The notes under the pieces: generated by a model | Told to the model about the DNA's origin: nothing | The model's input: the letters and a program-made list of their open reading frames with translations, nothing else | Databases searched by the model: none | Translations under genes and position numbers: made by a program | Shown: positions 17,085 through 21,008 of the stretch, piece after piece | Layout: each line of letters starts with the position of its first letter | Position numbering within the stretch: position 1 is the stretch's first letter | NCBI RefSeq assembly: GCF_016406125.1 | Contig: NZ_CP066339.1 | Coordinates: forward strand, 4,216,001 to 4,280,000 | DNA length: 64,000 nucleotides | Reading direction: 5' to 3' | Origin: Alicyclobacillus sp. SO9 | Lineage (GTDB): Bacteria; Bacillota; Bacilli; Alicyclobacillales; Alicyclobacillaceae

Positions 17085-17323
17085 TCTGCCGACAACCTCA
17101 ACTGCGTCCCAGGCTCACAGCCTAGCAGCGTCCCGCCCGCCGCAGCGGTGGCCGGAAGACCCAACGAGATCGATCAGGACCGGCCGAAAAAGGTAAGCGG
17201 AAAACTGCCCCTTATACACTTAAAATGAATGAAATTCCTAATATTGGTATAAATCTAGCATCCCCATGATGAAAACACTCATGCAGTGTCCAGTCTGAGC
17301 CAATTTGTTCGTGATGCGGTTAG
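17085..17323. repeat. Degenerate leading part of the tandem array
   Basis: This stretch resembles the GC-rich tail of the array units that follow: a block rich in GCCGC/CGGCC, a shared GGAAAACTGCC segment near 17200, then an AT-rich stretch leading to the first clear palindrome at 17324. It has diverged strongly from the later copies. I see no gene here. Confidence 0.5.
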
Positions 17324-17647
17324 TTAGGGATCCCGTTGATCCCTACGCCCCACCAATTAATGTCCATTTATGACACTAATGCCTCGGCCAAGGTGGCATT
17401 AGGGATCCTTGCGATCTCTATCGCGCCGGCACTGCGGAAATAGGGATCTTTCGAGGCACTAACCAGCCTCACCGCCCTACCGCCAGCCACCGCAGGCAGC
17501 GAGGCCCCGGCGAGCAACGGGATCAAAACGGGAACACGAGCGGAAAACTGCCATTAATCAACTGATATTGAAGTTATACCCTTGTAATAGGATGAATTTG
17601 GAAGGCGTTGCGATGGGCAGAGTGGGTGCAGGCGTCTGCGCCGTTGG
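17324..17647. repeat. Array unit 1 (shortened, four palindromes)
   Basis: A 324-base copy of the tandem unit. It holds palindromes at 17324-17346 (arms TAGGGATC and GATCCCTA, perfect), 17357-17380, 17398-17420 and 17440-17463, then a GC-rich tail with GAACACGAGCGGAAAACTGCC. Compared with unit 2 it lacks about 104 bases carrying two palindromes. No open frame is conserved between units. Confidence 0.85.
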
Positions 17648-18075
17648 TTAGTGATCCCGTTGATCCTTAGCTCGATATCCGCCACATGATAGTGATCGAT
17701 TCGATCACTATCACCAGCAGGCCCTCCGAAATAGTGATCCCTTTGCTCCTTATCACCCGCGCTCCACTCTGCCTCTCCCCAGAATAGTGCCCTTTTATGA
17801 CACTAATGCTACGAGCAAGGTGGCATTAAGGATCATTGGGATCACAATGGCATCGTCCCTCCGACAATAGGGATCTTTCGAGGCACTAACCAGCCTCACC
17901 GGCTGGCCCGCCAGCCACCGCAGGCAGCGAGGCCCCGGCGAGCAACGGGATCAAAACGGGAACACGAGCGGAAAACTTCCATTAATCAACTGAAATTGAA
18001 GTTACACCCTAATCATGGAATGAATTTGGCAGTTGCTGCGACGGACACGGGGGTGGGGGGTGTCTGCGCCGTTGC
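17648..18075. repeat. Array unit 2 (complete, six palindromes)
   Basis: A 428-base unit with six imperfect palindromes centred at about 17659, 17700, 17742, 17796, 17837 and 17879, giving centre-to-centre steps of 41, 42, 54, 41 and 42 bases. Most share the pattern TAGNGATC, five bases, GATCNCTA; the second is perfect over ten-base arms (GATAGTGATC / GATCACTATC). A GC-rich tail almost identical to that of unit 1 follows. Confidence 0.9.
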
Positions 18076-18140
18076 TTAGTGATCCCGTTGATCCTTATCT
18101 CGATATCCGCCACATGATAGTGATCGATTCGATCACTGAT

Positions 18141-18150
18141 ATGAACGAAG
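18141..18150 (+). repeat. Left sub-terminal inverted repeat of the IS
   Basis: ATGAACGAAG, three bases from the left CT core (18136-18137). It pairs with the right copy at 19809-19818. Confidence 0.85.
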
Positions 18151-18594
18151 GTGTCAACTACAACTTAGACTCCATGACACTACACCGTTCGAGTACCTAA
18201 GTACCGCGTGGCTTGAATTGGAGTGGCTGCCGTGATAGGCTCATTTGCCGCGGCCATTAAGTACTTTATATAGGCTGCCTTGGCTGCAGTCATCACGGCT
18301 GCAGAGGCTCCAAGTCAAGCCACTTGAGCTGAAAGACTCGACTCGAAGGCAAAAACTTCTCGACGATGAGCATTCTGATATGCGTGGGTTGGTTACCACA
18401 TAGTATCTCTCCGTCCAAGGAGCTTCCGACTAACTATTGGCGTGCGTTCGGTGGAGAAAGACTCTCCACGTAGCAACAAGTGATCTGCGTGGGTTCTCCT
18501 CTACGGTTTTACACTTTTGCCTTCGAGTCCAATCTTCAAGCCTTTATATCACTTCAAACGGTTATCCCACAGGGCTATGACAACGGCAACTTAC
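18151..18594 (-). ncRNA. Putative seekRNA / bridge RNA region of the IS1111-type element
   Basis: This 444-base non-coding stretch lies just after the transposase stop, where IS1111-type elements encode their guide RNA. TGCGTGGGTT occurs twice (18381-18390, 18486-18495). Next to the first copy, CTGATATG at 18375-18382 repeats exactly the left junction of the element including the CT core (18136-18143). Next to the second, AGTGATC at 18479-18485 is the exact complement of the target half-site GATCACT. In the RNA sense each guide-like segment directly follows AACCCACGCA. This fits one donor-recognising and one target-recognising loop. Exact RNA ends are not visible; similarity to known guide RNAs was not tested. 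Confidence 0.6.
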
Positions 18595-19710
18595 TCAGTT
18601 ACTAGCTACTGAATTCATTTCTTCTTTAGAGATGGCCCACACGAACCCAGCTAACTCTCGGGCAAGTGCAACGATGGCTTTGGTACTAGGCTTACCTCGA
18701 GAGAGCAATCGAAGGTATTTACGATGTAAGCGGTCCTGGGCTTTCCAAGAGATACTTTGCACAGAAGGGGACTGCCCTTCCTGTCGCTTTCGAATGTCCC
18801 CCCTCAATGCAGGTCTATAGCGATAGCTCCAAGCCGCTTCGACGAGTACTCTTCTTAGGTGGGTATTTCCTGTCTTTGTAACTTTCCCTTGACGTCGCAC
18901 AGGGCCGCTCGATGATTCACTCGGTATTAATCCTGTATATCCCATGAATTGACGGGCAGTCGTAAAGCGACGGAAGTCTCCAACCTCTACAACTAAGGTC
19001 ACTGCCGTAAGCTCTTTTACACCACGGAGTGTTTGTAGTGCTTGAATGACTGGCTTGTGTGGGCTTTTCATAGCCAGTTCGTGAATTTCTTTTTCCAAGC
19101 GTTCAATTCGTTGTGCAATTACAATAATTGCATGTAGATATTCTTGATGTGTCTGTTGTAGAGCTCGGTTCGAAAACTTTAACTGCTGTAGCCAAGCCAT
19201 ATATTTGCTCTTCCACTTTGTCATCTTGGCAGGGGATGTTAAGTCATGACGAAGAAGAAACTTACTCATGCGCTGTCTTGCTCTTAGTAAGTCCTCTTTT
19301 GCATCTTCTCTACAGCGCACTAGATCTCGCAGTGCCTCATCGTCTTCGTTCGGGACGTATACCGCTGTGAGCTCCCCTGCTCGGTGTAGATGTGCCAGCT
19401 TGATTGCATCTCGACGGTCTGTCTTCACTCGATCTCCAGGTCGTGACGGAATGAGAGACGGGGCGATAACAGAACACTTTACACCCATTTGGGTAAGCAT
19501 TCTCTGGAGTCCATATCCTAAGGGACCCGCTTCATAACAGACATCCAAATCCTCAGGTTGACCCAACTTCCGAATGAGTTTTCGAATTGCTTCCGGTGTG
19601 TTAGGAATAACCCCCCATGACCTTGGTGCATCTCTGCCGGCGTCGGCAACAGCAATAGCAATCGTATCTTTGGACGTGTCTAAACCAACATATTTTGTGT
19701 TATCCTGCAT
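18595..19710 (-). CDS. IS110 family (IS1111-type) transposase / recombinase
   Basis: A complete 371-residue IS110-family recombinase. The N-terminal RuvC-like DEDD domain shows Asp11 (GLDTSKDT), Glu60 (CYEAGPLGYGL), Asp98 and Asp101 (KTDRRDAIKLA). A coiled-coil middle region is followed by the C-terminal Tnp_20 domain (LRGVKELTAVTLVVEVGDF and FMGYTGLIPSESSSGPVRRQG), where Ser266-268 contains the catalytic serine position. The ATG at 19710 is preceded by AAGGAG at eight bases; further upstream codons lie in the element's end and the host array. The protein should form tetramers that join donor and target at a shared CT guided by the element's RNA. No frameshift or truncation is seen, so the copy could be active. 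Confidence 0.93.
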   Translation of the reverse strand: MQDNTKYVGLDTSKDTIAIAVADAGRDAPRSWGVIPNTPEAIRKLIRKLGQPEDLDVCYEAGPLGYGLQRMLTQMGVKCSVIAPSLIPSRPGDRVKTDRRDAIKLAHLHRAGELTAVYVPNEDDEALRDLVRCREDAKEDLLRARQRMSKFLLRHDLTSPAKMTKWKSKYMAWLQQLKFSNRALQQTHQEYLHAIIVIAQRIERLEKEIHELAMKSPHKPVIQALQTLRGVKELTAVTLVVEVGDFRRFTTARQFMGYTGLIPSESSSGPVRRQGKVTKTGNTHLRRVLVEAAWSYRYRPALRGDIRKRQEGQSPSVQSISWKAQDRLHRKYLRLLSRGKPSTKAIVALARELAGFVWAISKEEMNSVASN

Positions 19711-19808
19711 AGTATCGGCTCCTTCACAATGTAGCTCTGATTGGTTTTCTGGTTCTCTTACAAATCCAGTATTGCCAATTAACCTACGAAATTGTGACAT
19801 GGAGCCGA

Positions 19809-19818
19809 CTTCGTTCAT
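19809..19818 (-). repeat. Right sub-terminal inverted repeat of the IS
   Basis: The complement of ATGAACGAAG, five bases from the right CT core (19824-19825). Confidence 0.85.
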
Positions 19819-20030
19819 GATAACTATCACCAGCAGGCCCTCCGAAATAGTGATCCCTTTGCTCCCTAACCCCAACCTTCCATTGTGCCTCCCCCACGTT
19901 AGTGTCCATTTATGACACTAATGCCTCGGCCAAGGTGACATTAGGGATCCTTGCGATCACTATCGCACCGGCACTGCGGAAATAGGGATCTTTCGAGGCA
20001 CTAACCAGCCTCACCGCTCTACCGCCTAGC

Positions 20031-20935: not shown

Positions 20936-20999
20936 ACTGACTAACTGACTAACTGACTAACTGACTAACTGACTAACTGACTAACTGGCTAACTGACTA
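20936..20999. repeat. Eight tandem copies of an 8-bp repeat after ppc
   Basis: ACTGACTA is repeated eight times without gaps; the seventh copy has one change (ACTGGCTA). The run ends nine bases before the ppc stop codon, so it lies in the 3' untranslated part of the ppc transcript, upstream of its terminator. Confidence 0.95.
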
Positions 21000-21008
21000 A
21001 CTAACGTA

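What the first reader, a model, noticed from the sequence alone, without database searches (positions are those of the whole stretch)
17324..20005. Gene-free tandem array of regularly spaced palindromes
Three copies of a unit (324, 428 and 428 bases) carry 16 imperfect palindromes with the shared core TAGNGATC, about five bases, GATCNCTA. Within each cluster of three, centres are 41 then 42 bases apart, close to four helical turns; clusters are 53-54 bases apart. Loop sequences differ while arms covary (GGGATC/GATCCC in one, GTGATC/GATCAC in another), so pairing or dyad symmetry seems to be selected. No conserved reading frame, no cas genes and no iteron-linked replication gene are present. 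It may be a protein-binding array, a hairpin RNA, or a mobile REP-like repeat family. I do not recognise it.
Basis: seen in the sequence. Interest (0 to 1): 0.8.

Follow-up and report, generated by a model that had tools for sequence, protein, structure and literature searches.

The report
Helically phased palindrome arrays of Bacillales
The palindromes are one copy of a large family of intergenic DNA elements, found patchily across Bacillus-like bacteria, in which 21-base-pair two-fold symmetric sites lie a whole number of helix turns apart, as expected if an unknown protein lines up along one face of the DNA.

Summary
Sixteen 21-bp dyads (8-bp arms, 5-bp centre) form three units of a six-dyad module. 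Two details are wrong. The region is not gene-free: a 1,685-bp IS110-family insertion sequence (18138-19822) splits the second dyad of unit 3. The arms do not covary: pairing equals shuffled controls in 38 aligned copies.

The module occurs in at least 68 full copies at about 36 intergenic places in this Alicyclobacillaceae genome. The exact half-site version is absent from 40 other genomes of the family and from the 84,980-species collection. The architecture is not unique. A sister class (TAAGC...GCTTA dyads, tetrads spaced 51-61/62-51 bp) occurs in this genome, in A. acidiphilus and in about 25 other species of Bacillus, Cytobacillus, Neobacillus, Rossellomorea, Cohnella, Paenibacillus and Sporolactobacillus. 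Centre length is nearly always 5; neighbouring spacings are 41-42, 51-53 and 61-62 bp, i.e. 4, 5 and 6 helical turns.

Best reading: BIME-like intergenic elements carrying binding-site arrays for an unidentified dimeric DNA-binding protein, gained by lineages and secondarily targeted by an IS110 element. They lack the RAYT transposase of classical REPs. Protein binding is inferred, not shown. I found no published description in the library searched.

The parts
17170..17324 (+). Leader upstream of unit 1 (partly conserved: ...AAGCGGAAAACTGCC...TGCAGTGTCCAGTCT...TTCGTGATGC), also found before many other arrays
17325..17461 (+). Unit 1: truncated hexad, dyads at 17325, 17358, 17400, 17441 (dyads 2 and 3 deleted)
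17462..17648 (+). Inter-unit leader, partly conserved between arrays
17649..17888 (+). Unit 2: complete hexad, dyads at 17649, 17690, 17732, 17785, 17827, 17868 (spacing 41-42-53-42-41)
17889..18076 (+). Inter-unit leader
18077..18137 (+). Unit 3, first part: dyad 1 (18077) and the left part of dyad 2, cut within its right arm
18138..19822 (-). IS110-family insertion sequence (1,685 bp) inside dyad 2; two other copies in the genome (99.8 and 99.9% identical) sit at the same place of the same dyad, one in mirrored orientation
18598..19710 (-). IS110-family RNA-guided transposase gene (371 aa)
18138..18594 (-). Long non-coding region downstream of the transposase gene (presumed source of the guide RNA; IS1111-like arrangement)
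19823..20003 (+). Unit 3, second part: end of dyad 2 and dyads 3-6 at 19848, 19900, 19942, 19983

Best explanation
The region is one locus of a multi-copy family of intergenic elements. Each module is an ordered set of six 21-bp dyads with centres 4, 4, 5, 4 and 4 helical turns apart. Each dyad is a pair of half-sites (RWTAGKGATC) read as double-stranded DNA by a dimeric DNA-binding protein, not yet identified. Because all dyads of a module face the same side of the helix, neighbouring dimers can contact each other and coat, bend or loop the DNA. The elements behave like BIMEs: they lie between genes, more often between convergent genes than expected, in tandem copies, and were gained by particular lineages. 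An IS110 element has adopted dyad 2 as its insertion target. Shown by sequence: the architecture, phasing, half-site conservation without covariation, intergenic location, lineage-specific gain in A. acidiphilus, and the IS target. Inferred: that a protein binds, that it is dimeric and oligomerises, and any role in chromosome organisation or in spread of the element.
For: Arms are more conserved than linkers (0.92 against 0.74 mean column identity, P 1e-17) although linker lengths vary by only about 1 bp. Left and right half-sites draw independently on a degenerate half-site; dyads pooled from Bacillaceae genera also show no covariation. The centre is 5 bp: 64 perfect TAR/YTA dyads against 0-4 for every other length in 720 kb, and 62 against 0-1 in A. 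acidiphilus. In an unbiased dyad scan all pair distances under 130 bp fall at 41-42, 51-53, 61-62, 82-84, 93-97, 102 and 111-113 bp. Four spacing classes fit one pitch of 10.3 bp (P 0.004). Tetrads spaced 51-61/62-51 recur in A. acidiphilus and Bacillaceae with different half-sites; the 61-62 spacing was not part of the search pattern. No cluster lies in an ORF of 150 aa or more, and convergent gaps are enriched, 11 of 28 against 43 of 253 (P 0.009). A syntenic gap is about 1.6 kb in A. acidiphilus against 213-232 bp in five relatives and 513 in a sixth. All three copies of this IS sit in dyad 2.
Against: No binding protein was found; no array-linked gene recurs next to the arrays in other species. 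The presence of hundreds of sites in one species and none in its relatives is unusual for a house-keeping architectural protein. The 5-bp centres are also somewhat conserved, which a pure half-site model does not require. Distances between modules are not phased (for example 118 bp between tetrads), and the deletion in unit 1 leaves a 33-bp, out-of-phase spacing. The convergent bias is not significant in the other species (P 0.13). A. acidiphilus shows some arm correlation at position 7, and pools that mix several sub-families (Cohnella caldifontis, Paenibacillus) show arm correlations that a shift of half-site between sub-families could explain but that were not separated from pairing.
Confidence: 0.55

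Rival explanations
1. Non-autonomous mobile element: the dyads are binding sites of a transposase or recombinase that moves or amplifies the modules (MITE-like), and phasing serves assembly of the transposition complex rather than any host role.
For: Patchy distribution, many copies, lineage-specific gain of about 1.4 kb at a syntenic gap, intergenic placement, tandem amplification.
Against: No Y1/RAYT transposase in the genome or in A. acidiphilus, G006 and G015; no recurrent transposase gene among flanks; no target-site duplication or sharp common ends recognised. It is compatible with the best explanation, since the binding protein could be the mobiliser.
Confidence: 0.25
2. Structured non-coding RNA: the modules are transcribed and the palindromes are RNA hairpins.
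For: Both strands fold better than shuffles (z -6.4 and -4.2), as any palindrome array would; a leader is partly conserved.
Against: No covariation in 38 modules nor in pooled Bacillaceae dyads; frequent unpairable T:C and G:A combinations; no Rfam match; integer B-DNA helical spacing has no reason in RNA.
Confidence: 0.07
3. Operator arrays of a transcription factor controlling the flanking genes.
For: Dyad symmetry and phasing resemble operators with cooperative binding.
Against: Convergent gaps enriched, divergent gaps not; flanking genes are unrelated; hundreds of sites, arrays absent from the same syntenic gap in relatives.
Confidence: 0.06
4. Neutral tandem duplication relic of a once-mobile sequence with no present binding partner.
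For: Genome is rich in short tandem repeats around the arrays.
Against: Selective conservation of arms over linkers and of spacing across diverged copies and across genera.
Confidence: 0.07

Closest known systems
REP / BIME elements (GTAG- and CGTC-tagged REPs; PMC3733652, PMC2817692)
   Same: Short palindromes, hundreds of copies, strictly intergenic, clustered with regular spacing, targets of IS110 elements
   Different: No RAYT/Y1 transposase, no GTAG tag; unit is a fixed 21-bp 8-5-8 dyad in ordered tetrads or hexads with integer-turn spacing rather than REPs in alternating orientation
IS110 elements that insert into REPs (IS621, ISPpu9, ISPpu10, ISPa11; PMC1525189) and IS1111 elements with downstream non-coding region (PMC11187229)
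   Same: All copies at one position of a palindromic repeat, both orientations; DEDD transposase and long non-coding region
   Different: The target repeat here is a different family in a Bacilli host
bcr1 and the Bhal-1 / Bant-1 stem-loop families of Bacillus (PMC2267715)
   Same: Intergenic stem-loop repeats of Bacillales; Bhal-1 (74 bp) and Bant-1 (72 bp) have the size of two dyads 51 bp apart (72 bp)
   Different: Sequences of these families were not available to me; identity with the present class is untested
Chromosomal binding-site families such as Noc or SlmA sites (own knowledge)
   Same: Palindromic sites scattered over the chromosome, denser toward the origin as here
   Different: Those are single short sites, not phased multi-dyad arrays; no such protein was tested here

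Membership tests
REP/BIME with RAYT (REPtron) | Many short intergenic palindromes, often clustered | tested here: met
REP/BIME with RAYT (REPtron) | RAYT (Y1_Tnp, PF01797) encoded in the genome | tested here: not met
   0 matches in own genome and in A. acidiphilus, G006, G015
REP/BIME with RAYT (REPtron) | GTAG or CGTC tag at one end of the palindrome | tested here: not met
   Half-site logo RWTAGKGATC: the base before TAG is A or T in 98%, not G
Structured RNA family | Compensatory base changes | tested here: not met
Structured RNA family | Match to a known family | tested here: not met
   No Rfam match to the arrays
CRISPR array | Unique spacers between identical repeats | tested here: not met
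   Linkers are homologous between copies (column identity 0.74) and repeats differ
CRISPR array | Adjacent cas genes | not tested
   No dedicated search for cas genes was made; the flanking genes of the array itself are an MFS transporter and a DUF423 protein
IS110 family (the insert at 18138-19822) | DEDD transposase with IS110 C-terminal domain | tested here: met
IS110 family (the insert at 18138-19822) | Fixed target sequence | tested here: met
   3 of 3 copies in dyad 2 of hexads
IS1111 subgroup | Long non-coding region downstream of the transposase gene, subterminal inverted repeats of 11-13 bp | tested here: inconclusive
   Downstream region of 457 bp present; inverted repeat ATGAACGAAG/CTTCGTTCAT is 10 bp, slightly short of the stated 11-13
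Phased-dyad arrays (class described here) | 21-bp dyads with 5-bp centre, neighbour spacing an integer number of helical turns | tested here: met

The most novel reading that the evidence does not exclude
A Bacillales-wide class of selfish or architectural DNA elements, built as helically phased arrays of 21-bp dyads with a genome-specific half-site, is coated by a co-evolving dimeric protein that organises the chromosome or spreads the arrays: a Gram-positive counterpart of BIMEs without RAYT.
Probability: 0.35. Interest if true: 0.8.

Novelty: new variant of a known kind. Interest (0 to 1): 0.62.

Why it matters
It would define a class of interspersed DNA elements shared by many Bacillales genera, apparently not named in the literature I could search and without an Rfam model. 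The architecture (fixed dyad length, integer-turn spacing, lineage-specific half-sites) predicts a specific, findable DNA-binding protein and makes a simple phasing test possible. It also adds a Gram-positive case of an IS110 RNA-guided element settling in a palindromic repeat family.

Tried and rejected
Hairpin RNA: rejected for lack of covariation and Rfam matches. RAYT-driven REP: no Y1 transposase. CRISPR-like array: linkers are homologous, not unique. Phage or plasmid origin: no match in viral contigs, phages or plasmids. Operator array: wrong gene orientations and unrelated flanking genes. A guide match between the IS non-coding region and the dyad (GATCACT, 7 bases) is not above chance in shuffles, so it is only a lead. 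Association of class A with class B arrays within 1.5 kb: no more than random (3 of 11 against 2.8). Literature searches for the motif and for phased intergenic palindromes in Bacillus gave nothing relevant; the library lacks most subscription papers. The prevalence scan of Bacilli (3 of 399 sampled genomes) counts only the TAAGC/GCTTA half-site version and is a lower bound.

Full report
What is in the window. The three units begin at 17325, 17649 and 18077 and hold 16 dyads of 21 bp, two 8-bp half-sites around a 5-bp centre. Unit 1 lacks dyads 2 and 3, unit 2 is complete (spacing 41-42-53-42-41), and unit 3 is split inside dyad 2 by a 1,685-bp insertion sequence at 18138-19822. That insert encodes an IS110-family RNA-guided transposase, so the region is not gene-free.

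Extent in the genome. The window lies at C1:4216001-4280000 of a 5.29-Mb Alicyclobacillaceae genome; the family name is inferred from relatives: part of its second contig matches Alicyclobacillus plasmids only, and G061 of the same family is A. acidiphilus. BLAST with one unit gives 137 matches in about 36 clusters; a profile search on the fetched loci collects 68 full six-dyad modules. The palindrome pattern occurs 174 times here, the reversed control pattern 0 times, and neither the pattern nor the module occurs in the other family genomes searched. A two-dyad version is absent from all other species genomes and from viral contigs.

DNA sites, not RNA hairpins. Across 38 modules the arms are much more conserved than linkers (0.92 against 0.74, P 1e-17). 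Left and right half-sites vary independently among TAGTGATC, TAGGGATC, TAAGGATC, TAGGGAGC, TAAGGAGC and others. Standard pairs total 1255 observed against 1252 in shuffles. The half-site logo is RWTAGKGATC. No Rfam family matches. So the claimed covariation is refuted for these modules and a half-site read in duplex DNA fits better.

Phasing. In 720 kb of this chromosome, perfect dyads with TAR/YTA ends number 64 with a 5-bp centre and 0-4 for any other length. A scan that fixes only the ends and partial symmetry yields 220 dyads, and every pair distance below 130 bp falls at 41-42, 51-53, 61-62, 82-84, 93-97, 102 or 111-113 bp. With one pitch near 10.3 bp the four neighbour spacing classes are whole turns (P 0.004 against random spacings). 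The scan revealed a second class in the same genome: TAAGC-N11-GCTTA dyads in tetrads spaced 51-62-51.

Spread across Bacillales. Bacillaceae loci show complete tetrads 51-61/62-51/52 with half-site TAAGCGGA; the 61-62 spacing was not in the query, so it is independent support. The 50-52 spacing in these loci was selected by the query and is not independent. Only 3 of 399 sampled Bacilli carry this exact version, so the distribution is patchy.

Position and gain. None of 29 clusters lies within an ORF of 150 aa or more; convergent gaps are over-represented (11 of 28 against 43 of 253, P 0.009), and arrays are denser near dnaA (21 of 38 in the nearest quarter, P 3e-4). In other species the convergent bias is not significant and flanking genes are unrelated. 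One syntenic gap of about 1.6 kb with two tetrads in A. acidiphilus measures 213-232 bp in five congeners and 513 bp in a sixth, which shows gain in that lineage. No close relative of the window's genome was held, so gain at the window locus itself was not tested.

The IS110 element. Three copies, 99.8-99.9% identical, exist in the genome and all sit in dyad 2 of a hexad at the same base; one is in mirrored orientation, as the symmetry of the target allows. Insertion of IS110 elements in REPs is known (PMC1525189), and guide RNAs are the known mechanism (PMC11187229). The 7-base word shared between its non-coding region and the target is not significant.

Interpretation. The simplest account is a BIME-like class of intergenic elements that are arrays of binding sites for a dimeric protein aligned along one face of the helix. 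Whether this protein serves the chromosome or the element's own spread is open. RAYT-type REP membership fails: no Y1 transposase here nor in the richest relative, and no GTAG tag. I found no published description, but Bhal-1 and Bant-1 (74 and 72 bp; PMC2267715) could be fragments of it and could not be compared.

Noticed in passing
20936-21002: Eight tandem copies of ACTGACTA just beyond the array; many other arrays of this genome are also bordered by short tandem repeats of 4-20 bp.
   Followed up: no
L114:17251-18077: Second array class in the same genome: tetrads of TAAGC/TAGCGATC dyads spaced 51-62-51 in tandem units of about 309 bp.
   Followed up: yes
L239:1049-2421: Cohnella caldifontis: long, nearly perfect run of identical dyads TAAGCTTGCCGCGCAAGCTTA at exactly 52-bp period.
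   Followed up: partly
G000:C1: The genome holds 29 IS110-family matches in several groups; only the group with three copies was found in these arrays.
   Followed up: partly
17170-17324 and inter-unit stretches: A leader of about 120-150 bp with blocks AAGCGG..AACTGCC and TGCAGGCTCYCAGTC precedes many modules; function unknown.
   Followed up: partly
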